From Pirellula sp. (GTDB lineage: Bacteria > Planctomycetota > Planctomycetia > Pirellulales > Pirellulaceae), in the NCBI GenBank assembly GCA_021736575.1, contig JAIPFP010000017.1, positions 1-46,203 on the forward strand: a stretch of 46,203 nt of DNA, in the 5' to 3' direction. Below, one piece after another: positions 10,300-29,434 of this stretch. Every line of letters begins with the position of its first letter. The stretch's first letter is position 1. The notes below the pieces were generated by a model that saw only the letters and a list, made by a program, of their open reading frames with translations, did not search any database and was not told the origin of the DNA. Both the position numbers and the translations under genes were made by a program.

Positions 10300-10330
10300 T
10301 TGACCTTTCACACCCCTCGGGTGCTATCCT
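10300..10330 (+). promoter_or_regulatory. probable sigma-70 promoter of structured RNA A
   Basis: A -35-like TTGACC (10300-10305) and a -10-like GCTATCCT (10323-10330) are spaced 17-19 bases depending on the -10 register. Transcription would start near 10336 and run through a strong terminator at 10441-10494. Confidence 0.5.
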
Positions 10331-10335
10331 GAGTG

Positions 10336-10494
10336 CGGATGTACGACAAAGGAATAGTCCTGCGCAGTGCATCAATGCATCAACTTCGGATGACTCAGAT
10401 AAAAGTGGCTCGGCGTTTGCTGAGAAACTGGTAAATAAGTAAGCCGACGAAGCAAGCCTCCACCCAGGGGGCTCTCTCTTCGTCGGCTTTTTTT
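10336..10494 (+). ncRNA. candidate structured RNA A (leader or small RNA), upstream of hybrid kinase 1
   Basis: About 160 bases lie between a plausible promoter and a Rho-independent terminator, 88 bases before the kinase start. It contains a helix CTCAG/CTGAG (about 10395-10424) followed by TTTGCTGAGAAACTGGTAA and then the AAGCCGACG terminator stem. The start (TATCCTGAG) resembles TATTCTGAGG in candidate RNA B. The 3' part resembles both B (TTGCTAGTCAGCAGGTAAGC) and C (TTTGCCTAAGAAAACTAACC). No known riboswitch class was recognised. Whether it is a terminating leader of the kinase operon or an independent RNA is open. Confidence 0.5.
10441..10494 (+). terminator. strong Rho-independent terminator of RNA A
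   Basis: Perfect 12-base arms AAGCCGACGAAG (10441-10452) and CTTCGTCGGCTT (10478-10489) enclose a smaller AGCC/GGCT hairpin and are followed by seven T residues (10488-10494). Confidence 0.88.
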
Positions 10495-10582
10495 ATGCCT
10501 GTGACGTTTTCGAATCAACATTGCCGGTGAGCTGAATCGAAGCTGTTCGCCGTCGAAAATCGAGATACAGACTACTAAAACC

Positions 10583-13030
10583 ATGCCGAATTCAGCTCCA
10601 CCACCGTTGGTCGAAGACATTGAGAACTATGCTCAAAACATCGTCGATACGATTCGCGAGCCACTTCTAATCCTTAACGCGACCCTTCGTGTTCAGTGGG
10701 CAAATCGGGCTTTTTATCAGACATTTCAAGTGTCAGCATCGGAAACTGAGGGGCGACTCATTTACGAATTGGGCAATGGCCAATGGGATATTCCCGATCT
10801 ACGAACATTGCTCGAAGACATCGTCCCTAAGAGCTCGATGTTCGATGATTTCGAACTTGAGCATTCGTTTCCAGAAATCGGTCGTCGTTTCATGCTGCTC
10901 AATGCACGCAAACTTCAAGCCGGTCAACACGGTGAACTGCTCGTTCTTGCGATGGAGGATGTCACTGCGAGAAAGAAGGCCGAAGAGGATCTGATCAATG
11001 CTGGCGCGCTGCAGAATGCAATCTTCAATTCTGCCAACTTCTCGAGTATCGCTACCGACGAGAGGGGGGTCATCCAAATCTTTAATGTCGGCGCTGAACG
11101 CATGCTTGGCTACGAGGCCGCCGAGGTTATGAACAAAATCACGCCCGCCGATATCTCGGATCCGCTGGAAGTCATCGCACGCGCCAAAGCCCTAAGCTCC
11201 GAACTTCAAACCACCATCACACCTGGTTTCGAAGCCCTGGTTTTCAAAGCCTCGCGAGGAATCGAAGATATCTACGAATTGAGCTACATTCGAAAAGATG
11301 GCACGCGTTTCCCCGCTATCGTATCGGTGACTGCGCTTCGCGACGCTCACGAAAACATCATCGGCTACCTGCTTATCGGAACCGACAATACAGCTCGGAA
11401 ACAAGTCGAAGCGGAACGCATGCTGCTCGATCAACGTGTTCGCGACCAACAGTTTTACACTCGCTCGCTCATTGAATCCAACATCGATGCGTTGATTACA
11501 ACCGACCCGCGAGGAATCATTAGCGATGTCAACAAGCAGATGGAGGAGCTCACTGGTTGTACCCGAGACGAGCTGATCGGAGCTCCCTTCAAAGACTACT
11601 TTACTAACTCAGAGTTTGGCGAAGCAGGGATCAAATTAGTTCTAGCCGAAGGCAAAGTTACGGACTATGAGCTGACCGCACGAGCCAGAGACGGAACTCA
11701 AACGATCGTCTCCTACAATGCAACGACGTTCTATGATCGCGACAGGAAACTACAAGGTGTCTTTGCCGCAGCCCGCGATGTAACCGAACGAAGTCGACTT
11801 GAAAAGCAAATGCAACTCCAAGCGGCCGAACTATCCGATTTGCATCGGCGCAAAGACGAGTTCCTTGCGATGCTTTCCCACGAACTTCGTAGTCCTCTGG
11901 CCCCCATTTCGAACGCCGTTCAAATGCTTGGCATGCAGAGAAACAATGAGAGCTCGCTTCAGAAGGAAGCCAGAGGCATCATTGAACGTCAAACCGACCA
12001 ACTGCAACACCTTGTCGATGATCTTCTCGAAGTGTCGCGAATCACAACCGGCATGGTGCAACTTCGTAAAGTCTCGGTCGCAGTCGGAGACATTATTCGA
12101 TCGGCCGTAGAAACCGTTAGCCCACTGATTCTGCAACGTGGCCACAAAATGAACGTGACGATCCCAACGGAACTGATTTGGCTACATGCCGACGCGGCAA
12201 GGCTTGAACAGGTTTTGGTCAACTTGCTCACCAATGCCGCAAAATACACAGACCCTAATGGAACGATTTGGCTGAGCGCTGAGCGGTCTGGCGCTGAGTG
12301 CATTTTGCGAGTGAAAGATACCGGCGTTGGGATTACGCCCGAGTTGCTTCCTTGCATCTTCGATCTGTTCACCCAAGCTGAACGTTCGCTCGATCGTTCT
12401 CAAGGAGGCCTAGGCATCGGGCTAGCACTGGTTCAGCAGCTGACGGAATTGCATGGCGGTAAAGTCGAAGTCTTCAGTACGCTAAGGCAAGGAAGTGAGT
12501 TTGTCGTTCGGCTACCTGCGGAGTCGCCCAAGAGTATGGAGACCGTGCAAGTCGCAGTGGCTGTCCCCAACAAGCAAAGTATCCCCTTGCGGATACTCAT
12601 CGTCGATGACAATGTCGATACGGTATTGAGCTTTTCCATGTTGCTCAAAGAAACAGGAAATGAAGTGCAAACTGCACATGACGGTCCGACTGCGGTCAAG
12701 ATCGCGTTGGAAACCATCCCCGATGTTGTCTTGCTCGATATCGGACTACCAGGTCTTAACGGATACGAGGTTGCAAAGCAGATTCGAAATCAGCCGAGTC
12801 TCAAGAATGTAGTCCTGGTGGCTCTAACCGGTTATGGTCTGGAGTCAGACCGTCAAGCTTCGATGGAGGCAGGATTCAATCATCATTTGATTAAACCGGC
12901 AAAGCTAGAGCAAGTGCGAAAGATTCTTGCGAACGTCGCAGCACAATGTAGTGCAAACATACTTCGGACGGAAACGTCACAGAATCATTCGGCCATTGAG
13001 TCGAATTTTGAGGGCATCGATCGATCATGA
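10583..13030 (+). CDS. PAS-rich hybrid sensor histidine kinase (PAS x3, HisKA, HATPase, receiver)
   Basis: The product is 815 residues with no membrane segment. PAS domains lie at about 18-135, 142-275 and 290-405. HisKA is at 418-490 with H433 in SHELRSPLAP. The ATPase domain has NLLTNAAKY (N box), DTGVGI and GLGIGLALV, and a receiver sits at about 668-785 with D675/D676, D719 (LLDIGLPGLNG), T749 and K771. The PAS domains sense a small ligand, redox state or light in the cytoplasm; the signal is unknown. The receiver suggests a relay through the nearby HPt protein. Its stop overlaps the next start (ATGA), so both kinases are translated together. Candidate RNA A and its terminator lie just upstream. 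Confidence 0.93.
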   Translation: MPNSAPPPLVEDIENYAQNIVDTIREPLLILNATLRVQWANRAFYQTFQVSASETEGRLIYELGNGQWDIPDLRTLLEDIVPKSSMFDDFELEHSFPEIGRRFMLLNARKLQAGQHGELLVLAMEDVTARKKAEEDLINAGALQNAIFNSANFSSIATDERGVIQIFNVGAERMLGYEAAEVMNKITPADISDPLEVIARAKALSSELQTTITPGFEALVFKASRGIEDIYELSYIRKDGTRFPAIVSVTALRDAHENIIGYLLIGTDNTARKQVEAERMLLDQRVRDQQFYTRSLIESNIDALITTDPRGIISDVNKQMEELTGCTRDELIGAPFKDYFTNSEFGEAGIKLVLAEGKVTDYELTARARDGTQTIVSYNATTFYDRDRKLQGVFAAARDVTERSRLEKQMQLQAAELSDLHRRKDEFLAMLSHELRSPLAPISNAVQMLGMQRNNESSLQKEARGIIERQTDQLQHLVDDLLEVSRITTGMVQLRKVSVAVGDIIRSAVETVSPLILQRGHKMNVTIPTELIWLHADAARLEQVLVNLLTNAAKYTDPNGTIWLSAERSGAECILRVKDTGVGITPELLPCIFDLFTQAERSLDRSQGGLGIGLALVQQLTELHGGKVEVFSTLRQGSEFVVRLPAESPKSMETVQVAVAVPNKQSIPLRILIVDDNVDTVLSFSMLLKETGNEVQTAHDGPTAVKIALETIPDVVLLDIGLPGLNGYEVAKQIRNQPSLKNVVLVALTGYGLESDRQASMEAGFNHHLIKPAKLEQVRKILANVAAQCSANILRTETSQNHSAIESNFEGIDRS

Positions 13031-16000
13031 CCAGCAACCCTCGCAGAATTCTCATTATCGAAGATGATCCCGACGGCCGTGCAGACTTGCGGAAAATGAT
13101 CTTGAGCGGATCGGATCGGCGGTACGAATTTTCGGAGGCTGAGCTGGGCGCGACCGCTCTAAAACAAGTGCAGGAGAATGCCAACACGCCCTTCGACTGC
13201 ATACTGCTGGAATACCAATTGCCAGATCTAGACGCGCAGGAGATGCTGGCAGCGATTTGCGATGGCCGAGACTTACCGCCTTCCCCAATTGTCGTGCTGA
13301 CTGGCTCTGACCGCGAAGTTGGAAGGGAATTGTTGCGAGGAGGAGCACAGGATTACCTAGGGAAAGGTTGGATCACTCCCGAGAGCCTGACCCGCGCAAT
13401 CGAAAACGCCATCGATCGCTTTGCGATGCTGACTAAGCAAAGAAAAAACGAAGTGGCGTTGAGGGAAAGCGACGAGAAGTTTCGATCGCTTCTAGAATCG
13501 GCACCCGATGCAATGGTCATCGCCGATCCCTCAGGCCAAATTGTATTGGTTAACGCTGCGACGCTGCGTATGTTTGGTTACACGCGAAGCGAATTGATTG
13601 GCGTGAGAGTCGAAATGCTCATTCCGTCAAGTGCTCGTGAACGGCACGTACATCTCCGCATGGATTTCATAGCAAAGCCTCTAACGCGAACTATGGGGAA
13701 AGGGCAACCACTGATTGCTTTGCGCAAAGATGGAAGCGAGTTTCCAGTCGAGATTGCACTGAGTCCAATTGCACTGGAGAGCAGCATGCTGATTTCCAGT
13801 TCGATCCGAGACATTTCGGATCGCATCACCAACGCAAAAGCGATTGAAGAAAGTGAATCGAGGCTAATGTTAGGTGTCGAAGTAGCGGGCTTGGCTCTAG
13901 CTGAGGTTGACTACACGACTGGATTGAATCACTTAACGACAGACGCAGCCAGACTGTTTGGTCTGGCACAAGACGTCTTAGTTGTCCCTCGTGAAACCGT
14001 ACATGCTGCGTTTCACCCCAACGATCGCGACGAGATCCTAGTCCGAATTGACGATTCGCTTTCGCCATCAGGTCGAGGCTGGTTCGCCATGGACCATCGT
14101 GTCATTTGGCCCAATGGCGAGGTGCATTGGCTGCGTGTTCGCGAGCAAGTTTACTTTGAGGGGGATGGTGACAAGCGACATCCCGTACGCGGCGTGCTTG
14201 CATTATTTGACGTTACGGCGGAGAAAAACGCAGCAGAAATTGTGCGAGCAAGCGGCGAGTTCGTACGCGGAGTACTCGATTCGTTGCCTGAACACGTCGT
14301 TGTTCTGGACAACCTGGGCACAGTAATCGCGGTCAATCAACCGTCCGATCGTCATACAATGGAGAATGGAGCTACGCTTAGCACGGCCACTGTGGGAATC
14401 AATTATCTCGACTTGTGTCGTCAATCGATTGCAAAAGGTGGACCCGATGTCCATGGGATGATCGACGGTTTAGCGGAGGTACTCAACGGAACACGATCCG
14501 AGTTCAAAACGGAGTATCCCTGTCTAGCTCCAGGCCGTGAGGAATGGTTTTCGATGCATGCACAACGAATGCGGTCGGAAAACGCGGGGGTCCTCTTGTG
14601 TCATATCAACATCACCGATAGTCGAAACGCTCAGCGAAGGCTCGAGGAATCCGAAACTCGTTTTCGCCGGCTATTCGAAGCAGCCCACGACGGAATACTC
14701 ATCGTGGACGCTTCGACACGTAAGATCACGCATGTCAATCCCTTTCTTACGACCTTGCTCGACTACCCGGCTGAGTATTTTCTGGGCAAAGAACTTTGGG
14801 AGATCGGCTTTCTCAAGGACAAGCAAGCAAGCATACTCGCTATGGAGCAGTTGGACAAAATCGGATCGATGCGATACGAAGGACTACCGCTCGAAGATCG
14901 CCATGGCCAAAAACACCCGGTCGAAATGGTGGCGAACAAATACGAAGAAGGGTTGCATCACGTCATCCAGTGCAATATTCGAGATATCTTCGAGCGACGG
15001 AAAATGGAAAAACAGATGCTTTCTCAGGCAGCAGAGCTATCGGATTTGCATCGCCGCAAGGACGAATTCTTGGCAATGCTAAGTCATGAACTGCGAAGTC
15101 CACTCGCACCGATTGCTAACGCTGTTCAGCTGCTGGGGCTTCCTAATGGCGTTGAAAGTTCGGTTCAAAGGCAAGCACGTGGCATCATCGAGCGTCAAGT
15201 CGGCCAGCTACAGCACTTGGTCGATGATTTGTTAGAGGTATCGAGAATCACAACCGGTCGAGTACAACTCCGGCAAGCGCGGGTCGCGCTTCGCGGAATC
15301 GTTGATGGCGCAGTTGAAACCGCTCGTCCGGTGATCGATCAACGCAAACATGAACTAAGCATATCCCTACCGCAAGAGACACTTTGGCTTAATGCTGACG
15401 CTGCTAGACTGGAACAAGTGGTCGTCAATCTTCTCACCAATGCGGCAAAGTATACCGAAGAAAAAGGCCATATCTGGTTGAGTGTTCAGGTGGAGGATGA
15501 CGAATGCGTTCTTCGAGTTCGCGACACAGGGGTTGGGATTGCACCAGCTCTATTGCCCAAGATCTTTGATCTGTTTACTCAAGCGGAGCGGTCACTCGAT
15601 CGATCCCAAGGTGGACTCGGGATTGGACTTGCTCTGGTTCAACGATTGACAGAACTGCATGGCGGTCGAGTGGAGGTACACAGCTCGGTCGGGCAAGGAA
15701 GCGAGTTTGTAGTTCGACTACCATTGATGGCTATCGAGTTAACCGATACGCCTCCCCATTCCGCGGTTGAGGATCCGGCGGTGGTTCGGCCCTTACGCGT
15801 CTTGGTGGTCGACGACAATGTCGATACGGTTCTCAGCTTTTCCATTTTGCTGCGAGCATCTGGGCATGATGTTTTCACCGCAAATGATGGCCTATTAGCG
15901 GTGCAAGTGGCCAATGAGCAACACCCCGATGTTGTTCTTCTCGACATCGGGCTACCAGGGCTTAACGGGTACGACGTCGCCAAACGTATTCGCAAGCAAA

Positions 16001-16182
16001 AGGGGGGGAACGAGATTGTTCTGATTGCGTTGACCGGATATGGCCAGGACACAGATCGCGAGTTGTCTGCCCAAGCGGGCTTTAATCACCATTTAGTCAA
16101 GCCAGCCCGTCTCGATCAGGTAAAAGAGATCCTGGCAGCAGCGGCTGAACAACGTATCCATAATGTGACTAAGGAAAGGTAA
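13027..16182 (+). CDS. second hybrid histidine kinase with N-terminal degenerate receiver
   Basis: The product is 1051 residues, coupled to the first kinase by an ATGA overlap. Order: N-terminal receiver (6-130), PAS domains at about 146-270, 275-400, 405-535 and 540-660, HisKA with H687 (SHELRSPLAP), ATPase with NLLTNAAKY, DTGVGI and GLGIGLALV, and a C-terminal receiver (922-1040) with D973. In the N-terminal receiver the phospho-site is Glu62 (ILLEYQLPDLD; codon GAA) instead of Asp, while the acid pocket (E12-D13-D14), T92 and K113 remain. It may therefore mimic the phosphorylated state or be unphosphorylatable. The HisKA-ATPase-receiver half is closely similar to that of the first kinase, indicating tandem duplication. 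Confidence 0.93.
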   Translation: MTSNPRRILIIEDDPDGRADLRKMILSGSDRRYEFSEAELGATALKQVQENANTPFDCILLEYQLPDLDAQEMLAAICDGRDLPPSPIVVLTGSDREVGRELLRGGAQDYLGKGWITPESLTRAIENAIDRFAMLTKQRKNEVALRESDEKFRSLLESAPDAMVIADPSGQIVLVNAATLRMFGYTRSELIGVRVEMLIPSSARERHVHLRMDFIAKPLTRTMGKGQPLIALRKDGSEFPVEIALSPIALESSMLISSSIRDISDRITNAKAIEESESRLMLGVEVAGLALAEVDYTTGLNHLTTDAARLFGLAQDVLVVPRETVHAAFHPNDRDEILVRIDDSLSPSGRGWFAMDHRVIWPNGEVHWLRVREQVYFEGDGDKRHPVRGVLALFDVTAEKNAAEIVRASGEFVRGVLDSLPEHVVVLDNLGTVIAVNQPSDRHTMENGATLSTATVGINYLDLCRQSIAKGGPDVHGMIDGLAEVLNGTRSEFKTEYPCLAPGREEWFSMHAQRMRSENAGVLLCHINITDSRNAQRRLEESETRFRRLFEAAHDGILIVDASTRKITHVNPFLTTLLDYPAEYFLGKELWEIGFLKDKQASILAMEQLDKIGSMRYEGLPLEDRHGQKHPVEMVANKYEEGLHHVIQCNIRDIFERRKMEKQMLSQAAELSDLHRRKDEFLAMLSHELRSPLAPIANAVQLLGLPNGVESSVQRQARGIIERQVGQLQHLVDDLLEVSRITTGRVQLRQARVALRGIVDGAVETARPVIDQRKHELSISLPQETLWLNADAARLEQVVVNLLTNAAKYTEEKGHIWLSVQVEDDECVLRVRDTGVGIAPALLPKIFDLFTQAERSLDRSQGGLGIGLALVQRLTELHGGRVEVHSSVGQGSEFVVRLPLMAIELTDTPPHSAVEDPAVVRPLRVLVVDDNVDTVLSFSILLRASGHDVFTANDGLLAVQVANEQHPDVVLLDIGLPGLNGYDVAKRIRKQKGGNEIVLIALTGYGQDTDRELSAQAGFNHHLVKPARLDQVKEILAAAAEQRIHNVTKER

Positions 16183-16320
16183 GCATCCGAGTGCGTTTGC
16201 AAGTGGCGGGCATGGTTCCGCCTCGAATCGTGCATGCATTCGCCCCGAATGAGGCTAAAAAACCAAATCCAACATCCACCATCATTCAAACTTCCAACTT
16301 CCAACTTCAAACTCCCAACC

Positions 16321-17190
16321 ATGTCGACCATAGAAAAATCGCTTCGTGTGCTTATTGTCGACGACAATCGCGACGGAGCAGACGCACTTGGGTTGCTCGT
16401 AGAAGCATTGGGGAATCAGGTACATGTGACGTACGGTGGAATCCAAGCGCTCGATGTCGCATCCGCTTTCCAACCCGACTTGATGCTCATTGACCTAGTG
16501 ATGCCTGACATTGACGGTTGCGACCTGACGTCCCAGTTGCGTCGCATGCCAGCTTTCAAACAAATCAAGATCGTAGCCATTACCGGACTCAAGGACGAGA
16601 AACACCAAGTTTTGGCCATGAAGGCCGGATGCGATTTGGTTTTGACCAAGCCTGCTGCTTTGGATGACATCAAAGCCGTACTGGCCAATGTCGATCCCTC
16701 ATTATCTACAAGTATTCGCCCTCGAAAAAATTCCAAAGAACGATCGAGCCTATCGCCGGAGAAACGACTCCCAATTGACGAGGCCCGCAAGATTCGAAAC
16801 GACCGAAAATCGAAATCCTTAACTCAAACCGAAAGCGAAGCGGCAATCTGCGATGGAATCATCCGATTTCAAGAAGAGTATCTTGGTTGGCGATCGGACC
16901 AGGTGCAGATTCACTTCATCAAGGACATGCTGGTGGTTCGCATTCGGAGCGTTCTGACTTTGGCTGAGCGACAACTTGGCAAAACAGCCTCTCCAGAAAA
17001 GGGACGCGATCTGATCAAGCAAACACGTAAACAGTTGCTCGAATTAGCACGCCCGATGTTGGAATCCATTGTTTATGAAGCCATAGGTGTCAAAGTGCGA
17101 AGCATGCATCACGATATTAGTACTATTACTGGCGAGGAAGTGATTGTTTTTTCGCTCGAAGAAATTCCTCGTTTCGAGTTCGATCGGTGA
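16321..17190 (+). CDS. receiver domain fused to an MpsC (DUF2294) domain
   Basis: The product is 289 residues from the ATG at 16321; the frame is open back to 16234 but that part is AAC/TTC-rich intergenic sequence. The receiver (about 7-125) has D14/D15, phospho-site D58 (LIDLVMPDIDG), T88 (AITG) and K110. After a basic linker (RPRKNSKERSSLSPEKR), residues 171-280 match MpsC/DUF2294 (PF10057): IIRFQEEYLGW, VRSVLTLAERQLGKT-like segments, GRDLIKQTRKQLLELARPML and MHHDISTITGEEVIVFSL. MpsC is named for a sodium-translocating, membrane-potential-generating system, but its biochemistry is poorly known. A stand-alone MpsC lies at 28767-29132. Placement after two hybrid kinases suggests phosphorelay control of the MpsC part. 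Confidence 0.88.
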   Translation: MSTIEKSLRVLIVDDNRDGADALGLLVEALGNQVHVTYGGIQALDVASAFQPDLMLIDLVMPDIDGCDLTSQLRRMPAFKQIKIVAITGLKDEKHQVLAMKAGCDLVLTKPAALDDIKAVLANVDPSLSTSIRPRKNSKERSSLSPEKRLPIDEARKIRNDRKSKSLTQTESEAAICDGIIRFQEEYLGWRSDQVQIHFIKDMLVVRIRSVLTLAERQLGKTASPEKGRDLIKQTRKQLLELARPMLESIVYEAIGVKVRSMHHDISTITGEEVIVFSLEEIPRFEFDR

Positions 17191-17406
17191 TCGATCATCG
17201 ACCAATGCGACACACAGAATGCCAGCTCCTCGCTATTGTGGCATAGGCTTCCAGCCTGTGTTGAGTGCTCTTTCACAAGCTATTCACAATTCCAAGTCGT
17301 AGTGGTCCAAGAAATGCGTTAGCAAATCTACTCATCGAGCGAACTGTACTCAATCACGACGTCGCGCTCGAAGTTGCTACTTGGTTAAACGGAGAGTAAG
17401 AACATT
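17191..17406. other. intergenic region with a dispersed repeat
   Basis: This holds a 23-base repeat at 17238-17260 that recurs exactly at 19333-19355. No gene is seen. A good ribosome-binding site for the small gene at 17407 (GGAGAG) lies at its right end. Confidence 0.5.
17238..17260. repeat. dispersed repeat, copy 1 (core AGGCTTCCAGCCTGTG)
   Basis: This 23-base sequence is identical to 19333-19355. Its core AGGCTTCCAGCCT is a short hairpin related to the CAGGCTGxxAGCCTG palindromes at 37581-37643. Confidence 0.7.
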
Positions 17407-17526
17407 ATGAAGATTTCGAAAACATGGCTTGCCGCAGCAATGGCGATCACTTGTGCAGGTCCTTTAAGCGCTCAGAGTCCATCCTCAACACTGCCAAAGG
17501 ATTCGGCGACTCAGAATTTGCAGTAA
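17407..17526 (+). CDS. tiny secreted peptide (39 residues), possibly frameshifted at its end
   Basis: The ATG at 17407 has GGAGAG ten bases upstream. It encodes MKISKTWLAAAMAITCAGPL then SAQSPSSTLPKDSATQNLQ, a clear signal peptide with cleavage near LSA-QS and a short polar mature part. In another frame the DNA just after ACTCA reads EFAVNVDDPKK and stop (to about 17549). That looks like a natural C-terminus, so a small indel may have altered the last residues. The function is unknown. Confidence 0.6.
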   Translation: MKISKTWLAAAMAITCAGPLSAQSPSSTLPKDSATQNLQ

Positions 17527-17579
17527 ACGTCGATGACCCCAAAAAGTAAGATTAAGGCTTGCATCAGATTAAACAACCA

Positions 17580-19298: not shown

Positions 19299-19612
19299 CG
19301 CAAGTAGGCGTGCGGCAAGTAGGGTCGTGCAAGTGGCATAGGCTTCCAGCCTGTGAGTAACCTCGCCGCATGAGTTCGACGTTGTCAATGTTAGGGCAAT
19401 CCAACTCGAAGACAATGAGCAAAGCGATAACGTTTTAATAATGGTTTTTGGTAATGCGTGCTGCGCATTGCGCATTGCGCATTCCGCATTCGGGCTTTCG
19501 GACTTTCGGACGAAAGGGCAATTTCCTCCTGTTCTAGGTTCATGATGTCGCCCCTAGCTTTGGGAACAGTTAGGCCAACAATGCGATTGCTCCTTGCTTT
19601 TTCGCGTCCAGA
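19299..19612. other. intergenic region with repeats
   Basis: It holds the second exact copy of the 23-base dispersed repeat (19333-19355) and a short low-complexity run with three near-copies of GCGCATT (about 19460-19490) followed by GGGCTTTCGGACTTTCGGAC. No gene is seen. Confidence 0.5.
19333..19355. repeat. dispersed repeat, copy 2 (core AGGCTTCCAGCCTGTG)
   Basis: This copy is identical over 23 bases to 17238-17260. The two copies flank the small peptide and phosphatase/reductase genes, so that segment could be deleted or duplicated by recombination. Confidence 0.7.
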
Positions 19613-19621
19613 GCCTATTCT
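19594..19621 (+). promoter_or_regulatory. probable sigma-70 promoter of structured RNA B
   Basis: TTGCTT (19594-19599) and TATTCT (19616-19621) are separated by 16 bases. The discriminator reads GAGG, as in candidate RNA A (TATCCTGAG). This lies 166 bases before the glucan synthase start. Confidence 0.6.
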
Positions 19622-19627
19622 GAGGTC

Positions 19628-19747
19628 TGATACAAAACGGATCGGAAGACTAGACGAAGAGCAATTCGGCAAGACCGGATTGCTAGTCAGCAGGTAAGCC
19701 GGCGCGGCGGTGGGCCTTAGGGCACATCAGGCCACGTCGGCTTTTTT
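19628..19747 (+). ncRNA. candidate structured RNA B, leader of the cyclic glucan synthase gene
   Basis: About 120 bases lie between a good promoter and a terminator that ends 39 bases before the synthase start. A long helix is visible: GACTA (19648-19652) with TAGTC (19684-19688), continued by GCAAT (19661-19665) with ATTGC (19679-19683) and CGG/CCG around CAAGA. The 3' side runs TTGCTAGTCAGCAGGTAAGC into the terminator stem, parallel to RNA A. Its position directly in front of the synthase would suit an attenuator or riboswitch; an independent small RNA is the alternative. No known class was recognised. Confidence 0.55.
19696..19747 (+). terminator. Rho-independent terminator of RNA B
   Basis: AAGCCGGCG (19696-19704) pairs with CGTCGGCTT (19735-19743) with one G-U pair. 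Inside it lies a GTGG-GCCT/AGGC-CAC helix. Six T residues follow (19742-19747). Confidence 0.82.
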
Positions 19748-19786
19748 CGTTAAATAGTCGCTAAACCCAAGGGAACGTGCGCGGCA

Positions 19787-22700: not shown

Positions 22701-25700
22701 ATCCTCAGACGCTTGCGATTGCAAGTCCATTCTTAATCGTATGGGGTGCATCACCGGCTATCGCGTGGTGGTTGAGCCGCCTCATTCCGTTGCCAGTCGT
22801 CCGACTAAACGATCCTCAGCGTCAATTCCTCCGAAAAATGGCTCGGCGAACATGGCGTTATTTCGAGGTGTTTGTCACTGCCGAAGACAACTGGTTGCCA
22901 CCGGATAATGTGCACGTCAACCCAAGGGAAGTGATCGCTTCTCGAACCAGTCCCACCAATATTGGCATGGCACTCCTCGCGGATTTAGCTGCGTTTGATT
23001 TCGGATATTGTTCTGGTACTCGACTGATGAATCGAACGCATAAAACGTTCGGCACGCTCGCCAAGCTGGAAAGGCATCAAGGCCATTTCTTCAATTGGTA
23101 CGACACCAAGACTTTGGCACCTCTTTTGCCTCGCTACGTTTCAACCGTAGACAGCGGAAATCTTGCAGGCCATTTAAGGGTATTAGCAACCGGGTTCGAG
23201 CAAATGATCGATTCCTCGATCGTTCCGTCTCGCGTTTTTGATGGACTGCACGATACGCTAGGTGTACTGCTTCAAGAAATGGCGACAATCTCGCCCCGTA
23301 TCGGCGACGTAGCGACTCGATTGGTAGGAAGCGCAAGCCACCGCCGAATCGAAATGCAAATGGATTCGATTGCCAATCAAGGAGCGAACCTTCGATCCTC
23401 GTTTGATATTTTGTCCAGAATAAAAAACGAAATGTCCGAGTTAGCCATGACTCTGGCACCGAATACGGAATCCAGTTGGTGGTGCAATGCTGTCGCTCAA
23501 ACCTGCGAGGATCAACTTGCCGATTTGAGATCGATGGGGCTTTGGTCGACAATAGCAATGCCAGATGAACAAGCTCGGGGAGAGCAGACACAGGCCGGCC
23601 TAGATCTTTTCAAAGAACTGCAATCCGAGCTTGAACAGTTGGGTACAAATCCAACGCTTCGATCTGTCGCGTCTCTACCGGAGACTCTTTTCCCCATGAT
23701 TGATTCCCTGCGATCGCATGCCATGAAGGCCGGATCGATTGAGCCTGAAACGCTGGCCGAAACAAGTCAATGGAATGAATCGGGCAGTGTCGCAGGATTG
23801 AGTAGATCAGCTAACGCCTTGGGCTCAAATAGTACCTTTGCGCTTTGGTTGGATGCATTGCAAACTGCCATGGCCGAGTCAGCCAAGTATGCAGCCAGTC
23901 GTATTCGCGAGCTTGAACGATTGTGCGTGGAGTGTCGGGAACTTGCCGACATGGATTTCAGCTTCTTAGAAAGCAAGATGCGAGATCTATTCGCGATTGG
24001 GTTCAACGTAACCGACAACCAAGTCGATTCTGGCTGTTATGACTTGTTGGCTTCGGAAGCTCGGCTCGCAACTTATGTGCTCATCGCGCAAGGACAACTC
24101 GGGCAAGAGCACTGGTTTGCATTAGGGCGATTGCTGACGAGTACCGAGGGAGAGCCAGCCCTTCTAAGTTGGAGCGGCTCGATGTTCGAATACTTGATGC
24201 CCTTGCTGGTAATGCCAACTTACGATTACACTTTGCTCGATCAGACTTATCGCGCCGTGGTTGCTAGGCAAATCGAATACGGTCGACAGCGAGGAGTTCC
24301 CTGGGGCGTTTCCGAATCGGGTTACAATGCGTTCGATCTCAATCTGAACTACCAGTATCGTGCGTTTGGCGTTCCCGGCCTTGGCTTGAAACGGGGGCTT
24401 GCAGACGATCTGGTGATTGCACCGTACGCGTCGGCTTTAGCCTTGATGGTGTCCCCTAACCTCGCCTGTCGCAATCTTGAGCGTCTTGCACGCGAGGATC
24501 GTGCGGGCGGTTATGGGTTCTACGAAGCCATCGACTACACTGTTTCTCGACTACCACCTGGAACCAGCAGCGTTACGATTCGTCAGTACATGGCACATCA
24601 TGCAAGCATGAGTTTGCTCTCTTTTGCGTATGTTCTGTTGGACAAGCCGATGCAGCAGCGGTTCAATCTGGACCTCGCGTTTCGATCGAGTGAGCTGTTG
24701 CTCCAAGAACGAGTTCCGAGGAACACGGTGCCACTCTTTCCGCACGCGAACGAGGCGAATGCGACTCGGATCTCCGTTGCCGAAGAGGCTGGAACGATGC
24801 GTGTTCTGTCGGATCCGACGACCGCCGTCCCAGAGGTTCACTTATTGTCCAACGGCCAGTACCACGTTGCCATCACAAGCGCAGGTGGTGGTTACAGTCG
24901 ATGGAGAGGGATATCAGTCACGCGTTGGCGTGAAGATCCAACACGCGATTGCTGGGGCAACTTTTGCTACATCCGAGACCTTGAGAGCGGTACAGTATGG
25001 TCAACCTCCTGGCAACCAACAACGACGCTTGCCAAGAAGTACGAAGCCATATTTACCCAAGCGCGGGCTGAGTTTCGTCGCATTGATGAGCAAATCGAGA
25101 TGCATACCATGATCAGCGTTGCTTCCGAGGATGACTTAGAGGTGCGGAGAACCAGGCTCACGAACAGATCGGATCGCGCTCGTCGCATCGAGATTACCAG
25201 CTATGCCGAAGTGGTCTTAGCACCGCAACCACAGGACGAATCGCATCCCGCATTTAGCAATCTTTTTGTACAAACGGAATTGTTACCCCTGCAAAGCTCC
25301 ATCCTTTGCACACGTCGCCCTCGATCTGCGGAGGAAAAGCCACCTTGGATGGTCCATATGATGACTGCCACGGGTACGCAAGTGGAAGAAACGTCTTACG
25401 AGACCGACCGGATGCGATTCCTTGGCAGGGGCCAAACGACGGCTTCACCTCAATCGCTGAAGAGTCGAAGCCCACTCTCGAACAGTTCTGGGGCGACCCT
25501 CGATCCGATTGTGAGCATCCGCAAAGTCATTCTGCTCCAGCCCAACGAGACCGTGACCGTCGATGTCATCACGGGAGTGGGGGAATCTAGTGCAATCGCA
25601 AAGGCAATGATCGAGAAGTACCTCGACTCGAGCCTGGCGGATCGAGTTTTTGAGCTGGCTTGGACACGGGGGCTCATCATGCTACAGCAACTCAACGCGT

Positions 25701-28660
25701 CGGAATCGGAGGCTTTGACTTATAGTCGGCTAGCTGGATCCATCATTTATTCGTCCGGAATGCGGCGAGCCAAACCAAGTGTGCTCATTCAGAACAGGCG
25801 CGGTCAATCCGGCCTTTGGAGCTACGGGATTTCTGGCGACTTGCCAATTGTGTTGGTTCGAATCCGTGACACCGAAAAGCTTGATTTGGTTCGCGAGTCC
25901 GTGCGGGCGCACGCCTATTGGAGAATGAAAGGCCTCGCGGTGGACTTGGTTATTTGGAACGAAGATGACTCGGTCTATCGTCAGTCGTTGCAGGAGTCCA
26001 TCCTGAACATTGTTTCGGCAAGCCCTGAGGCCGCTCTGGTGGATCGGCCCGGTGGAGTGTTTGTGCGTCGCGGTGAGCTTATGTCGGAAGAGGATCGTGC
26101 ATTGCTTCAAACGGTAGCGCGCGTCGTGCTACTAGACGATGCTGGAAATCTGATCGATCAAGTCAATCGTCGCGTTCGTCCCGAGCTGGCGGTGCCTCGG
26201 TTTAGGCCAAGTAGGACACAACTTGAAATCGACTCAACGGGGGCATTTGAAACGCACGATCTTGAGTTCAATAACGGAATCGGCGGCTTTAGTCGCGATG
26301 GACGAGAGTATGTCATTACTCTCAAGCCCTCGCAAGCGACACCGGCACCATGGGTCAATGTCATTGCCAACGCAAAGATTGGTACCGTCATCTCGGAGAC
26401 GGGTAGCGCCTACACTTGGACTGAAAACAGCCACGAGTTTCGATTGACGACGTGGAGCAACGACCCGGTCTCGGATACGGCTAGCGAAGCGATCTATCTG
26501 CGAGATGAAGAGACGGGTAGGTTTTGGTCACCATCGCCATCGCCAGCTCGCGGGGCTGGAACTTACGTTTCTCGACATGGCTTCGGCTACAGCATGTTCG
26601 ACTATACCGAGGATGGCATTACAACGGAATTGTGCATCTATGTCTCGATCGATGAACCGATCAAGTACGCACGACTGAAGGTCACCAATCGTTCCGGTAG
26701 GCAGCGAAAACTTTCGGCCACGGGATTTTGGGAATGGGTACTGGGCGAAGTTCGAAGCAAGTCGTTAATGCATGTTGTGACCGATGTGGATCCAGTCACG
26801 AATGCGATATTCGCTCGAAATCCTTACAGTCCCGAGTTTGCGGACCGCATCGCTTTCGTCGATTGCAGTGAATCCAATCGAACGATAACGTGCGATCGAA
26901 CCGAGTTTCTTGGTCGAAATGGGAGCCTGACTAATCCAACGGCGATGCGGAGAACGAAGCTTTCGAATCGAGTCGGAGCTGGCTTAGACCCTTGCGCGGC
27001 GATTCAGACGCAACTGACGATTGAAGACGGTCAAGAGAAGACGGTCATGTTTACGCTTGGGGCTGCCAAGAGCGAAGAGGAAGCTCGAACACTGATTCTC
27101 AAAACGCGAGGAGCGGAGAGCAGTTACAAAGCCCTCGAGGACGTATGGCACTACTGGAGCCAAACGCTGGGTACCGTTCACATAGAGACACCGGATCCCT
27201 CGGTCAATTTCTTGGCCAATGGATGGCTCATTTATCAAACGCTTTCTTGTCGCATGTGGGCTCGTTCAGGGTTCTATCAATCGGGCGGAGCATACGGCTT
27301 TCGAGATCAGCTTCAAGATGCCATGGCGCTCATTCATGCCGAACCGAGCTTATTCCGTGAGCAGATTCAACGAGCAGCGTCGCGACAGTTCCTCGAGGGG
27401 GATGTCCAACACTGGTGGCACCCACCGGTTGGTAGAGGCGTTCGGACACAGTTCTCGGATGACCTTTTGTGGCTTCCTCTGTCGCTGTGTCGCTATGTCC
27501 AAATGACAGGTGATACCGGATTGCTTGATGAGCCGATTCCCTATCTGGCATCGAGGCTACTGCATGACGACGAAGAAGCGAACTACGATCTGCCGCAGAT
27601 CTCCGACGACATTGGTTCGGTCTATGATCACGCGTTGCGAGCAATCGATCGATCGATGAAGTTTGGAAGCCATGGGTTGCCGCTGATGGGATGCGGTGAC
27701 TGGAATGACGGCATGAATCTTGTCGGAAAGAACGGAAAAGGGGAGAGCGTTTGGCTGGCGTTCTTTCTCTATGAGGTTTTGAACCAGTTTGCAACTTTAG
27801 CGCGACAACGCGACGATGTCGGGACAGCAGATCGACTCGAGTTAGAGGCGGGGCGATTGCGAGGGAACATCGAACAATCTGCTTGGGATGGCAAATGGTA
27901 TCGACGAGCTTACTTCGACGATGGGACGCCGCTGGGCTCTTCTGAAAATATGGAATGTCAAATCGACTCGATCTCGCAGAGTTGGTCCGTGCTGTCAGGG
28001 GCGGGCACACAAGAAAGGACAACGATCGCTATGGAAAGTCTGTACAAACGCCTTGTGAAGAGCGATGAGCAGTTAATACTGCTGCTCGATCCTCCCTTCG
28101 ACAAATCGGCTCTCGATCCGGGTTACATCAAGGGTTATGTACCAGGAGTTCGCGAGAACGGCGGCCAATATACGCATGGAGCCATCTGGACCGCGATGGC
28201 CTTCGCTGAGATGGGGCAAACGGATCGAGCTTGGGAGCTGTTTTCGATGATCAATCCAATTCATCATGGTTCGACACCGGCGGGAATTGGAAAGTATCGA
28301 GCGGAGCCCTATGTCGTTGCAGCAGATGTCTATGGAGTCGCTCCACACGTAGGCCGAGGCGGCTGGACATGGTATACGGGCTCGGCGGGCTGGATGTATC
28401 GGCTGATCATTGAATCGCTATTGGGGCTGCATTTGGACGTCGACAAGTTACGATTTAATCCCCGGCCACCGCGAGCTTGGCCCTCATTCAAAATGCACTA
28501 TCGTTATCGAGAGACCACTTACCACATCACGGTAAAATGCAACGGCCAAGGGACGACGATTCAATCGCTGTTGGTCGATGGAATTGAGCAAGCAGAGCAT
28601 TTCGTTCGCTTGGTAGACGACAGATCCAATCATCAAGTGGAAATTGGATTAGGCAGTTGA
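19787..28660 (+). CDS. cyclic beta-1,2-glucan synthase (NdvB/Cgs type; GT84 plus GH94)
   Basis: The product is 2957 residues, slightly longer than rhizobial NdvB or Brucella Cgs (about 2830-2870). Residues 1-410 are soluble. Membrane helices lie at about 420-470, 828-870 and 952-1000. The GT84 glycosyltransferase (about 495-800) has LVVVPTMLTHVDSIERLLEG, LDTDTQLP (DxD-like) and RRHRWIRGDWQ. A glycoamylase-like domain follows (about 1017-1620; TWRYFEVFVTAEDNWLPPDN, MAHHASMSLLSF), then two GH94 beta-sandwiches (about 1677 and 2155). The GH94 catalytic barrel (about 2460-2885) has GGAYGFRDQLQD and the catalytic Asp in GCGDWNDGMNLV. Known members polymerise UDP-glucose into beta-1,2-glucan, trim and cyclise it; the product is periplasmic. 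No NdvA-type exporter is nearby. Candidate RNA B precedes it. Confidence 0.93.
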   Translation: MAMAETLSSNTDDRSCVIPRTSNDSASLEPPFRDELLSADQLERHAQHLAATHELASGRVADKLITRLAENEKILQSTYDEVAAAVVRNRRIAPAAEWLLDNFYLLEEQIHSTRRLLPRSYSQELPQLTNGSAAEYPRVYGIALELISHTDGRVDAQALEGFIAAYQSVVPLQLGELWALPLMIRLALIENLRRVAARIAIARRDRDLAADWAEQMISTVEKCPSDLILVLADMARSNPTLSGAFLADLTRYLQGQNPNFALVHGWLEHRLTDSGHSTEQLVLDEGQLQAAEQISVGNSITSLRFLSVHDWPKFVAKHSLVEQTLNRDPSGVYELMDFQTRNRYRHAVEAIAKRSHVSEFDVAFRAIQLAENEPASKLNSPKRHVGYFLIDQGRPILERLVQMRLTASVVIDKLRRTFPLSIYFVAVFVFAWLGIEGLIRLGDWSASSIALGCIVFVPVVMCGVQFALGMVNWLATILVRPNALPRMDFRAGIPEEHRTLVVVPTMLTHVDSIERLLEGLETRFLANRDASLQFALLTDFQDADTETLPKDAEMVGHAKRGIERLNQMYSLAGRDTFFLLNRHRKWNECEGTWMGFERKRGKLADLNATLRGATDRFSDTSGNLSDLTHINYVITLDTDTQLPRDSARKLVESMAHPLNRPQFDTKSGVVTTGYSILQPRVAISMASSRRSWFVRLIGSDPSIDPYTRVVSDVYQDLFGEGSFIGKGIYDVDAFEKCCGNFPVNAILSHDLLESCFCRSALISDVTLYEDHPSSYAADVSRRHRWIRGDWQIAAWLLPRVRGHSQHIGNPISSLSRWKIFDNLRRSLMPIAMFTLLLATWLMGSQSIALAATWFVVLVVAAPRIMSALIDFAFKPTDLSVATHLQSALQALVRPIAQCLFTLIFLPYDVWINADAVVRTLVRVHWTRRRLLEWRTSSDSERSASSDLVGFCRTMSVAPLTAALSLVTIAVVNPQTLAIASPFLIVWGASPAIAWWLSRLIPLPVVRLNDPQRQFLRKMARRTWRYFEVFVTAEDNWLPPDNVHVNPREVIASRTSPTNIGMALLADLAAFDFGYCSGTRLMNRTHKTFGTLAKLERHQGHFFNWYDTKTLAPLLPRYVSTVDSGNLAGHLRVLATGFEQMIDSSIVPSRVFDGLHDTLGVLLQEMATISPRIGDVATRLVGSASHRRIEMQMDSIANQGANLRSSFDILSRIKNEMSELAMTLAPNTESSWWCNAVAQTCEDQLADLRSMGLWSTIAMPDEQARGEQTQAGLDLFKELQSELEQLGTNPTLRSVASLPETLFPMIDSLRSHAMKAGSIEPETLAETSQWNESGSVAGLSRSANALGSNSTFALWLDALQTAMAESAKYAASRIRELERLCVECRELADMDFSFLESKMRDLFAIGFNVTDNQVDSGCYDLLASEARLATYVLIAQGQLGQEHWFALGRLLTSTEGEPALLSWSGSMFEYLMPLLVMPTYDYTLLDQTYRAVVARQIEYGRQRGVPWGVSESGYNAFDLNLNYQYRAFGVPGLGLKRGLADDLVIAPYASALALMVSPNLACRNLERLAREDRAGGYGFYEAIDYTVSRLPPGTSSVTIRQYMAHHASMSLLSFAYVLLDKPMQQRFNLDLAFRSSELLLQERVPRNTVPLFPHANEANATRISVAEEAGTMRVLSDPTTAVPEVHLLSNGQYHVAITSAGGGYSRWRGISVTRWREDPTRDCWGNFCYIRDLESGTVWSTSWQPTTTLAKKYEAIFTQARAEFRRIDEQIEMHTMISVASEDDLEVRRTRLTNRSDRARRIEITSYAEVVLAPQPQDESHPAFSNLFVQTELLPLQSSILCTRRPRSAEEKPPWMVHMMTATGTQVEETSYETDRMRFLGRGQTTASPQSLKSRSPLSNSSGATLDPIVSIRKVILLQPNETVTVDVITGVGESSAIAKAMIEKYLDSSLADRVFELAWTRGLIMLQQLNASESEALTYSRLAGSIIYSSGMRRAKPSVLIQNRRGQSGLWSYGISGDLPIVLVRIRDTEKLDLVRESVRAHAYWRMKGLAVDLVIWNEDDSVYRQSLQESILNIVSASPEAALVDRPGGVFVRRGELMSEEDRALLQTVARVVLLDDAGNLIDQVNRRVRPELAVPRFRPSRTQLEIDSTGAFETHDLEFNNGIGGFSRDGREYVITLKPSQATPAPWVNVIANAKIGTVISETGSAYTWTENSHEFRLTTWSNDPVSDTASEAIYLRDEETGRFWSPSPSPARGAGTYVSRHGFGYSMFDYTEDGITTELCIYVSIDEPIKYARLKVTNRSGRQRKLSATGFWEWVLGEVRSKSLMHVVTDVDPVTNAIFARNPYSPEFADRIAFVDCSESNRTITCDRTEFLGRNGSLTNPTAMRRTKLSNRVGAGLDPCAAIQTQLTIEDGQEKTVMFTLGAAKSEEEARTLILKTRGAESSYKALEDVWHYWSQTLGTVHIETPDPSVNFLANGWLIYQTLSCRMWARSGFYQSGGAYGFRDQLQDAMALIHAEPSLFREQIQRAASRQFLEGDVQHWWHPPVGRGVRTQFSDDLLWLPLSLCRYVQMTGDTGLLDEPIPYLASRLLHDDEEANYDLPQISDDIGSVYDHALRAIDRSMKFGSHGLPLMGCGDWNDGMNLVGKNGKGESVWLAFFLYEVLNQFATLARQRDDVGTADRLELEAGRLRGNIEQSAWDGKWYRRAYFDDGTPLGSSENMECQIDSISQSWSVLSGAGTQERTTIAMESLYKRLVKSDEQLILLLDPPFDKSALDPGYIKGYVPGVRENGGQYTHGAIWTAMAFAEMGQTDRAWELFSMINPIHHGSTPAGIGKYRAEPYVVAADVYGVAPHVGRGGWTWYTGSAGWMYRLIIESLLGLHLDVDKLRFNPRPPRAWPSFKMHYRYRETTYHITVKCNGQGTTIQSLLVDGIEQAEHFVRLVDDRSNHQVEIGLGS

Positions 28661-28671
28661 GCTAGGTGGAC

Positions 28672-28688
28672 GGCACATGGAATGTGCC
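28672..28688. repeat. palindrome GGCACAT-GGA-ATGTGCC after the synthase gene
   Basis: Seven-base arms surround a 3-base loop, starting 12 bases after the synthase stop. The flanking CTACTAC is typical of dispersed planctomycete repeats. It has no T-run, so it is not a classical terminator. Confidence 0.6.
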
Positions 28689-28766
28689 TACTACTTTGAC
28701 TTTTGTCGGTTGTGTCTAAAAAAGGAGCAGCCCAATCCCCAAGGAATCGACGGTCGTCGCGCCGAC

Positions 28767-29132
28767 TCACACCTTCTTTTTCAGTTCGCGGCAGACTGGC
28801 GGGGCCGCCAAGGTAAAGATAACGATTTCTTCCCCGGTTACGGTGCTAATGTCGTGGTGCAAACTGACTGGCTTGACGCCGGTGATATCGCGAATGATCT
28901 CTTCTAGTTTAGGTCGGGCGATCTCGATCAGCTGAGACCGAACCTGTTTGAGCAGGTCCCGGCCCTTGTCCACGGGTAACGTTTGTACCAAATGCTGTTC
29001 TGCGGCGGTCAAAACGCCTTGGAGTCGAACAACCAGCAGATCATCGATCAAATGCGCGTGAATGTCCTTGGGCCCGCGACCCATGAATTCAAGTTCGAAT
29101 CGTGAGATGCACTGGCAAATCAACGCTTCCAT
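28767..29132 (-). CDS. stand-alone MpsC (DUF2294) family protein
   Basis: The product is 121 residues from the ATG at 29132, with AAGG four bases upstream; a TTG at 29234 would add 34 unlikely residues. It covers the full MpsC domain: RFELEFMGRGPKDIHAHLID, LLVVRLQGVLTAAEQHLVQT, KGRDLLKQVRSQLIEIARPK, LEEIIRDITGVKPVSLHHDI and STVTGEEIVIFTL. It is clearly homologous to the C-terminal half of the receiver protein at 16321-17190. It converges on the glucan synthase gene. MpsC is annotated as part of a sodium-translocating membrane-potential-generating system; its direct activity is not established. Confidence 0.88.
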   Translation of the reverse strand: MEALICQCISRFELEFMGRGPKDIHAHLIDDLLVVRLQGVLTAAEQHLVQTLPVDKGRDLLKQVRSQLIEIARPKLEEIIRDITGVKPVSLHHDISTVTGEEIVIFTLAAPPVCRELKKKV

Positions 29133-29280
29133 CTCACCTTGGGTTTTTGGCGGTTCGATAATTTTTCTTATACCTGCTTTTTTGAGGATCCCGCTACACG
29201 GGGCGATGGTACCTTGACTGCATTCAGATAGCAATCAAATTACCGCGACTACTAGGTGGGAAGCGATCAGATCGAGAAAA
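29133..29280. other. upstream region of the MpsC gene
   Basis: This should hold the MpsC promoter (minus) and the start of RNA C (plus). An open extension of the MpsC frame to a TTG at 29234 is present but unconvincing. Confidence 0.4.
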
Positions 29281-29434
29281 ACGGTTCGATTGTGCTATGG
29301 TTGCTCTCTCGTTGGGTGAGCGACAGATTGCAGTATCTTCATCCCGTGTACTGCATTTGCCTAAGAAAACTAACCGCAGTAGGTTGTATTCGGCGACGCC
29401 GACGTTTAGCAGATACGCAATACGTCGGTTTTTT
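29281..29434 (+). ncRNA. candidate structured RNA C, upstream of the sigma-factor operon
   Basis: A segment with helices TGCAGTA/TACTGCA (29329-29335 with 29348-29354) and AACC/GGTT (about 29372-29384) leads into a terminator at 29399-29434. The stretch TTTGCCTAAGAAAACTAACC resembles RNA A's TTTGCTGAGAAACTGGTAA, and AAAAACGGTTCG resembles B's AAAACGGATCGG. The promoter is unclear (possible -10 TATGGT at 29296-29301), so the 5' end is a guess. It ends about 215 bases before the sigma-factor start. Confidence 0.35.
29399..29434 (+). terminator. Rho-independent terminator of RNA C
   Basis: CCGACGT (29399-29405) pairs with ACGTCGG (29422-29428) and is followed by six T residues (29429-29434). 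The stem sequence echoes those of RNA A and RNA B. Confidence 0.8.

What the first reader, a model, noticed from the sequence alone, without database searches (positions are those of the whole stretch)
10300..29434. Three intergenic elements share terminator stems and short internal motifs: a candidate RNA family
Segments A (10300-10494), B (19594-19747) and C (about 29281-29434) each end in a strong terminator with a CCGACG/CGTCGG-type stem (CCGGCG in B's left arm, pairing with CGTCGG) and a T-run. A and B have a promoter and a matching start (TAT-C/T-CTGAG). Upstream of the stems are TTTGCTGAGAAACTGGTAA (A), TTGCTAGTCAGCAGGTAAGC (B) and TTTGCCTAAGAAAACTAACC (C). They stand before the first hybrid kinase, the glucan synthase and the sigma operon. 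No known riboswitch class was recognised. They could be terminating leaders that sense a common ligand, or small RNAs.
Basis: partly seen in the sequence, partly recalled or inferred. Interest (0 to 1): 0.72.

Follow-up and report, generated by a model that had tools for sequence, protein, structure and literature searches.

The report
Stress-gene RNA switch of Planctomycetes
Two of the three elements belong to an unlisted family of RNA switches that sits in front of stress-type genes in many Planctomycetes and can fold either to stop or to allow transcription; the third element is an unrelated tRNA-linked repeat.

Summary
A (10386-10493) and B (19642-19747) are homologous members of a structured cis-regulatory RNA family; C (about 29281-29434) is not. 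A covariance model from A/B homologues found 179 distinct elements in fetched loci. On a 73-member alignment 95.1% of cells pair and 20 of 25 pairs have changes on both sides (slid controls 8-11). Rfam 15 has no match at gathering score. A scan of 84,980 species genomes listed 80 loci, 77 with Planctomycetota names. Behind the elements, same-strand ORFs hit 97 Pfam families, opposite-strand ORFs 2. The conserved 5' CGG pairs with the frozen CCG of the terminator's 5' arm: folding gives this antiterminator in 175 of 176 truncated transcripts and the terminator in 172 of 176 full ones. So it is a terminator/antiterminator leader of a stress-type regulon (DUF2294/'MpsC', NdvB-like glucan synthase, BON, CsbD, YflT, ice-binding, hybrid kinases). 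The effector is unproven. Best candidate: a DUF2294 paralogue that lies divergently beside elements, is receiver-fused in A-led operons, and occurs in 17 of 21 element-bearing relatives against 1 of 39 others. Against it, DUF2294 also occurs in many genomes without the element.

The parts
10300..10330 (+). promoter-like boxes before element A (TTGACC; extended -10 TGCTATCCT, spacing 19)
   Evidence: read; TGNTAYNCT in all five aligned A homologues; not above the scanner's cut-off
10386..10493 (+). element A: leader RNA, antiterminator hairpin overlapping a terminator
   Evidence: R1 95.5 bits, E 7.8e-18 (A is in the training set); homologues in 4 other genomes by plain DNA search
10386..10389 (+). 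A, P0 5' strand UCGG
   Evidence: positions 2-4 at least 0.90 conserved in 73 and 115 elements
10393..10395 (+). A, P1 5' strand ACU (pairs with AGU 10438-10440)
   Evidence: third pair seen as UA, UG, AU, GC, CG
10441..10449 (+). A, terminator 5' arm AAGCCGACG; CCGA 10444-10447 is also the P0 3' strand
10481..10494 (+). A, terminator 3' arm CGTCGGCTT and T-run
10583..13030 (+). first gene led by A: PAS hybrid histidine kinase
   Evidence: Pfam
13027..16182 (+). second hybrid histidine kinase of the A-led gene row
   Evidence: Pfam
16234..17190 (+). response-regulator receiver fused to DUF2294 (PF10057 'MpsC'), U clade; candidate trans-acting regulator
   Evidence: Pfam; tree; element, kinase, receiver-DUF2294 order also in L096 and L100
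19593..19621 (+). promoter-like boxes before element B (CTTGCT, 17, TATTCT)
   Evidence: kept in same-genus B homologues; not above the scanner's cut-off
19642..19747 (+). element B: leader RNA of the same family
   Evidence: R1 103.7 bits, E 1.4e-19 (B is in the training set); plain DNA matches in 9 other genomes incl. other families
19642..19645 (+). B, P0 5' strand UCGG (pairs with CCGG 19699-19702)
19696..19704 (+). B, terminator 5' arm AAGCCGGCG
19735..19747 (+). B, terminator 3' arm CGTCGGCTT and T-run
19787..28660 (+). gene led by B: NdvB-like cyclic beta-glucan synthase (GT2 plus GH94; NdvB likeness recalled)
   Evidence: Pfam; 8 of 65 downstream ORFs form its BLAST cluster
28767..29234 (-). 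stand-alone DUF2294 protein of the U clade; candidate trans-acting regulator
   Evidence: Pfam; tree; model pLDDT 91.7, no significant PDB match
29281..29434 (+). segment C: decayed copy of the tRNA-Met 3' end and its terminator; NOT a member of the A/B family

Best explanation
A and B are 5' leaders that control transcription of the next gene by attenuation. The nascent RNA first folds a long interrupted hairpin (P0 CGG/CCG, a purine-rich 3x3 loop, P1 ACU/AGU, then P1b, P2, P3). P0 ties up the 5' arm of the terminator, so it is an antiterminator. Without help the terminator, about 9 kcal/mol more stable, wins and transcription stops before the gene (inferred default OFF). A factor that recognises the conserved base (P0, 3x3 loop, P1) would hold the antiterminator and switch the gene ON. 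The same leader stands in front of many stress-type genes across the Planctomycetota, making a post-initiation regulon. Shown by computation: family, structure, mutually exclusive folds, cis position. Inferred: default state, factor, signal. The best candidate factor is the U-clade DUF2294 protein, free or as a phosphorelay receiver-DUF2294 fusion that would feed back on its own A-led operon.
For: Covariation: 20 of 25 pairs with changes on both sides, score 0.464 against 0.215 shuffled and 0.047-0.095 slid (alignment fitted to the model). Specificity: with up to 135 candidates scored per genome, 0 of 27 planctomycete genomes picked for lacking earlier hits gave any at E 0.01; CCGAC/CCGGC/CCGAT arms in only 5 of 52 other strong terminators. 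Cis position: 97 Pfam families among 107 downstream same-strand ORFs, 2 among 99 opposite-strand ORFs; 17 divergent, 4 tandem, 0 convergent pairs. Switch: P0 in 175 of 176 truncated folds, terminator in 172 of 176 full folds, median gap 8.8 kcal/mol; the three terminator pairs whose 5' bases P0 also uses hardly vary while pairs 90 and 94-96 of the same stem covary. DUF2294: in 17 of 21 element-bearing and 1 of 39 other relatives (Fisher 2.5e-10); a split of support 1.0 separates 41 U-clade from 33 D-clade domains, 29 of the D clade first behind an element, 27 of the U clade divergently beside one, none the other way; PF10057 is the only recurrent divergent neighbour (14 of 47 scanned, 7 added by hand).
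Against: No transcript, termination or binding data. P0 has almost no compensatory change of its own (one A-U case, L115; 8 of 73 members do not pair at position 1), so conservation by sequence-specific recognition without P0 is not excluded. DUF2294: no hit in G003, G016, G023 (and G014, whose element hit is weak), G092 and G278 although they carry elements; G040 and G053 show only the D type. In the 294-genome sample 14 of 19 PF10057 genomes have no R1 hit, and a sensitive re-search of 13 of these plus G046 found none. 140 of 188 elements have no DUF2294 gene within the distances tested. D-clade genes are targets, which inflates co-occurrence. The DUF2294 model has no significant PDB match (best Foldseek E 0.05). 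Relatives are not independent; many genomes are incomplete MAGs.
Confidence: 0.85

Rival explanations
1. Metabolite- or ion-sensing riboswitch: the same terminator/antiterminator leader (so it shares the main reading and differs only in the effector), but the conserved base and internal loops bind a small molecule directly, with DUF2294 only one of the regulated stress genes.
For: Same anatomy as ON-switch riboswitches (recalled); tandem copies; element-bearing genomes without DUF2294.
Against: Conserved unpaired positions are few: a 3x3 purine loop plus A-rich loops only moderately kept; targets share no single pathway; no Rfam family reaches its gathering score.
Confidence: 0.3
2. Family of independent small RNAs, each with its own promoter and terminator, acting in trans.
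For: Promoter-like box and terminator about 120-170 nt apart.
Against: Co-directional placement before the next gene, divergent but no convergent pairs, antiterminator architecture.
Confidence: 0.05
3. Known protein-bound antiterminator (ANTAR or BglG/LicT type) under a new sequence.
For: Same logic: protein-stabilised hairpin exclusive with a terminator.
Against: ANTAR: 0 hexaloops with A1/G4 and a single hairpin in 175 of 176 folds; PF03861 in 10 of 60 relatives, 5 of which carry elements, so 16 of 21 element-bearing relatives lack it. BglG: PF03123 in 0 of 60.
Confidence: 0.02
4. CsrA-controlled leaders: CsrA binds the conserved GGA and blocks P0.
For: The CGGANGAC core holds a GGA; a csrA gene is behind one element (L104).
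Against: CsrA is in 60 of 60 relatives, elements in 21, so the distribution neither supports nor excludes it; the GGA is partly within the predicted helix, not in a hairpin loop.
Confidence: 0.08

Closest known systems
ANTAR-target RNAs with response-regulator antiterminators (EutV, NasR, AmiR)
   Same: Works like it: RNA antiterminator exclusive with an intrinsic terminator; here a receiver domain is fused to the candidate output domain and lies in an operon led by the element (PMC3369931, abstract and passages).
   Different: No two-hairpin hexaloop motif, and no ANTAR protein in most element-bearing relatives; candidate protein domain is DUF2294.
BglG/SacY/LicT RAT antiterminators
   Same: Single stem-loop overlapping the terminator, bound by a protein (PMC3369931 passages; details recalled).
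   Different: No CAT_RBD protein found in 60 relatives; stress-type rather than sugar genes.
Transcription-attenuating ON riboswitches
   Same: Basal helix doubles as antiterminator; some copies in tandem (recalled comparison).
   Different: No known class matched in Rfam 15; small conserved loop core; ligand unknown.
PF10057 / DUF2294 'MpsC' proteins
   Same: Pfam family of the candidate regulator and of 13 of 107 scanned downstream ORFs.
   Different: The name comes from the S. [quoted passage not shown] My searches for DUF2294/MpsC papers (listings) showed no RNA role.

Membership tests
Terminator/antiterminator leader (attenuator) | Two mutually exclusive folds, one an intrinsic terminator | tested here: met
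   antiterminator in 175/176 truncated, terminator in 172/176 full folds (computed only)
Terminator/antiterminator leader (attenuator) | Located in the 5' leader of a co-directional gene | tested here: met
Terminator/antiterminator leader (attenuator) | Condition-dependent read-through | not testable with these tools
   Needs RNA data
Any Rfam 15 family | Match at gathering score | tested here: not met
   Whole window 0 matches; B none at E<=1; A three chance-level rows, best STnc240 22 bits vs 55 needed, E 0.34
ANTAR-target RNA | Two hairpins with hexanucleotide loops, A at 1 and G at 4 | tested here: not met
   0 such loops in 176 folds, one hairpin in 175
ANTAR-target RNA | ANTAR protein in the same genomes | tested here: not met
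   PF03861 in 10/60, absent from G000 and from 16 of 21 element-bearing relatives
BglG-type RAT | CAT_RBD protein in the same genomes | tested here: not met
   0/60
Metabolite riboswitch | Direct ligand binding | not testable with these tools
   Needs in-line probing or calorimetry
DUF2294-bound RNA (proposed) | Element and DUF2294 co-occur | tested here: inconclusive
   17/21 vs 1/39 in relatives; 5/7 in the phylum sample, where 14 of 19 DUF2294 genomes lack the element
DUF2294-bound RNA (proposed) | Protein binds the RNA | not testable with these tools
   Needs gel shift or CLIP

The most novel reading that the evidence does not exclude
DUF2294 (misleadingly named MpsC) is a new class of RNA-binding antiterminator: stand-alone and receiver-fused forms recognise a purine-mismatch hairpin (CGG-ANG-ACU/AGU-AAG-CCG in the main type; perhaps GGC-AG/AG-GCC in a distant variant beside DUF2294 in other planctomycetes) and switch on a phylum-wide stress regulon by transcription antitermination, with feedback on their own operon.
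Probability: 0.4. Interest if true: 0.9.

Novelty: new variant of a known kind. Interest (0 to 1): 0.78.

Why it matters
It would be an RNA-level stress regulon spread over Planctomycetes, with a clear two-state mechanism and a short list of effectors; I met no description of it in Rfam 15 or in my paper searches (listings only, open-access library), which were few and narrow. It also gives a testable function to DUF2294, a domain whose family name points to a role (MpsABC) that published work found it does not play.

Tried and rejected
C as a third member: rejected (no R1 hit; tRNA-Met repeat). Small RNA reading: rejected by orientation statistics. ANTAR and BglG factors: rejected. CsrA: untestable by distribution because it is in all 60 genomes. 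PDB homologue of DUF2294 by sequence (best E 0.21) and by fold (best E 0.05, many top rows chains of ribosome structures): nothing significant. Early degenerate patterns matched too few known members and were replaced.

Rows dropped: 33 of 98 rows had 34.6 bits or less; nearly all are an element's own palindromic terminator seen on the other strand (L098:10272 is an exception) and were left out. One such row (L169:3787, 42 bits) was also dropped. One search used 63 of the 65 rows (49 bits or more), 115 of 116 and 10 rows of L106-L115: 188 elements, 179 distinct. In one search, 3 of 179 lacked the landmark and were not folded. For some searches I passed 107 of 110 and 99 of 101 ORFs (repeats and the dropped row's ORF left out); 12 of 116 elements had under 400 nt of downstream DNA.

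A distant variant: weak unfiltered R1 hits (E 0.002-0.3 for most) beside DUF2294 genes in genomes without R1 elements. GGCAGA...TAGGCC plus T-run was found in 4 of 14 DUF2294-centred loci and once in 936 kb of other loci. A second model R2 from those four sequences found 8 places in 5 of 26 genomes: its own four plus four new ones, two of the new ones upstream of pyruvate:ferredoxin oxidoreductase (Pfam). Three of the four founders are from one family, and hits just 3' of the DUF2294 gene could be its own terminator. I treat it as a lead only.
Full report
WHAT IS THERE. The window is one whole contig of an unnamed planctomycete genome (G000:C250). Segments A and B were read directly. Plain DNA searches of 60 relatives, G000 included, matched A in 5 genomes, B in 10, reaching other families of the order, and C in 12. 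Aligned in the right orientation, A and B homologues form one family from TCGGA to the T-run. C's matches form a different, multi-copy repeat; three fetched copies stand directly behind tRNA-Met(CAT), and C is identical to its own genome's copy at 87 of 129 aligned columns. C is therefore set aside.

STRUCTURE. Fifteen homologues gave a consensus of P1 ACU/AGU, P1b, P2, P3 and a terminator, 12 of 25 pairs with both sides changed. Model R1 found hits in 21 of 60 relatives, up to 12 per genome, and two, A and B, in G000. Over the window and 39 fetched neighbourhoods it found 65 hits above 41 bits. On 73 aligned members 95.1% of cells pair against 82.5% in column shuffles, 20 pairs have changes on both sides against 8-11 when partners are slid, and the covariation score is 0.464 against 0.215 shuffled and 0.047-0.095 slid. 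That alignment was fitted to the model and so leans towards it. The third pair of P1 appears as UA, UG, AU, GC and CG.

THE SWITCH. The most conserved residues are not in the apical part but at the base: CGGANGAC and GUAAGCCG. The 5' CGG can pair with the CCG of the terminator's 5' arm. In 73 members the counts are C2-G93 66 CG plus 6 UG and 1 GG; G3-C92 73 of 73; G4-C91 71 GC, 1 A-C, and in L115 A-U. Position 1 pairs in 65 of 73. In the terminator stem the pairs at 91-93 hardly vary while 90 and 94-96 covary; 88 and 89, outside P0, vary little too. This is what two overlapping helices predict, though sequence recognition would also give it. Folding the transcript up to the end of that arm gives P0 in 175 of 176 testable elements and P0 plus P1 in 174. 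Reversing the first four bases leaves P0 in 0 of 176. The full RNA forms the terminator in 172 of 176, and forcing P0 costs a median 8.8 kcal/mol. This is the anatomy of a terminator with a competing antiterminator. Between P0 and P1 lies a 3x3 loop, ANG against AAG; that it forms sheared purine pairs is inference.

WHERE IT SITS. In the 65-hit set the next gene is usually co-directional, often starting 30-120 nt after the terminator; for some hits the ORF choice is uncertain. As a stricter test on the pattern-selected set (115 elements in 80 named loci, a few of them the same DNA as in the first set), I took the longest same-strand ORF and the longest opposite-strand ORF behind each. The 107 same-strand ORFs scanned hit 97 Pfam families, the 99 opposite-strand ORFs two. 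The number of members with a hit was not reported. There are 17 divergent pairs, 4 tandem pairs and no convergent pair. These are leaders.

REGULON. Among the 65 downstream ORFs of the first set, BLAST clusters named by Pfam are: glucan synthase 8, PAS kinases and receivers 7, DUF2294 6, BON 6, ADH-type oxidoreductases 5, aldehyde dehydrogenase 2; single cases include YflT, CsbD, CsrA, STAS, baeRF, fatty-acid desaturase and a cation ATPase. In the named set: DUF2294 13, ice-binding 3, P-type ATPase 3, KaiC 2, BON 2, YflT 2. The theme is stress or osmotic adaptation; that reading is mine.

DISTRIBUTION. The pattern CGGAHGACTN{36,46}GTARRCCGRYRN{20,50}CGGYTTTT, which holds 36 of the 73 known members, was scanned exactly over 84,980 species genomes. 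All 80 listed loci also hit R1. An even sample of 294 genomes of the phylum gave R1 in 7, with only 13 candidates scored per genome. No Rfam family fits, and my few paper searches found no description (listings only).

CANDIDATE EFFECTOR. PF10057 (DUF2294, 'MpsC') occurs in 18 of 60 relatives. It is in 17 of the 21 with elements and 1 of the 39 without (Fisher 2.5e-10, ignoring relatedness). CsrA is in 60 of 60, ANTAR in 10 of 60, of which 5 carry elements, CAT_RBD in 0 of 60. Of 188 elements, 30 have a DUF2294 gene divergently upstream within 700 nt, 32 one downstream within 500 nt, 14 both, and 140 neither. A tree of 74 DUF2294 domains near elements has a split with support 1.0. On one side (D), 29 of 33 are first behind an element and none is divergent. 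On the other (U), 27 of 41 lie divergently beside an element and none is first behind one (overlapping loci make a few duplicates). The U clade is strongly conserved (61-70% identical to the window protein for most members). It contains the window's stand-alone protein and the receiver-DUF2294 fusion, the third gene of the A-led row; L096 and L100 show element, hybrid kinase, receiver-DUF2294 in the same order. PF10057 is the only recurrent divergent neighbour (14 of 47 scanned; I had added 7 known ones by hand where the automatic choice took another frame). In S. aureus mpsC was dispensable for MpsAB function and not collocated with mpsAB outside staphylococci (PMC6689103, passages), so the Pfam name is no objection.

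AGAINST THAT CANDIDATE. Six element-bearing genomes show no PF10057 hit (G003, G014 with a weak element, G016, G023, G092, G278) and G040 and G053 only the D type. In the phylum sample 14 of 19 PF10057 genomes have no R1 hit, and a sensitive re-search of 13 of them plus G046 stayed negative. Weak hits beside their DUF2294 genes and a second model suggest a diverged variant in some, but own-gene terminators are a confounder. The AlphaFold2 model (pLDDT 91.7) has no significant PDB match.

VERDICT. A and B are members of a new family of transcription-attenuating leaders spread over the Planctomycetota, new in sequence and regulon and known in kind.

Noticed in passing
window 29281-29445; L018, L021, L031: C belongs to a multi-copy repeat: tRNA-Met(CAT) 3' end plus its terminator, also found without a recognised tRNA and at contig ends (three in G002), possibly attachment-site remnants of islands.
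   Followed up: partly
window 10583-17190; L096, L100: Element-led row of hybrid kinase(s) ending in a receiver-DUF2294 fusion, kept in two other genomes: looks like a phosphorelay feeding back on its own leader.
   Followed up: partly
L254 3163-3248, L258 4119-4206, L260 2978-3066, L261 3850-3923; L268, L270, L271, L272: Possible distant variant, GGCAGA...TAGGCC plus terminator, next to DUF2294 genes and at four further places (two upstream of pyruvate:ferredoxin oxidoreductase) in planctomycete genomes without the main element.
   Followed up: partly
L069 8689/8810, L137 6196/6321, L150 1317/1437, L171 5923/6140: Tandem copies of the element 17-112 nt apart, each with its own terminator.
   Followed up: no
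L187 7103-7207: Element on a contig titled Chloroflexi MAG; misbinning or horizontal transfer.
   Followed up: no
60 relatives: CsrA is present in every one of the 60 genomes, in 2 to 14 copies.
   Followed up: no
PF10057: The Pfam name MpsC is probably misleading: mpsC was dispensable in S. aureus (PMC6689103, passages) and the domain is fused to receivers here.
   Followed up: partly
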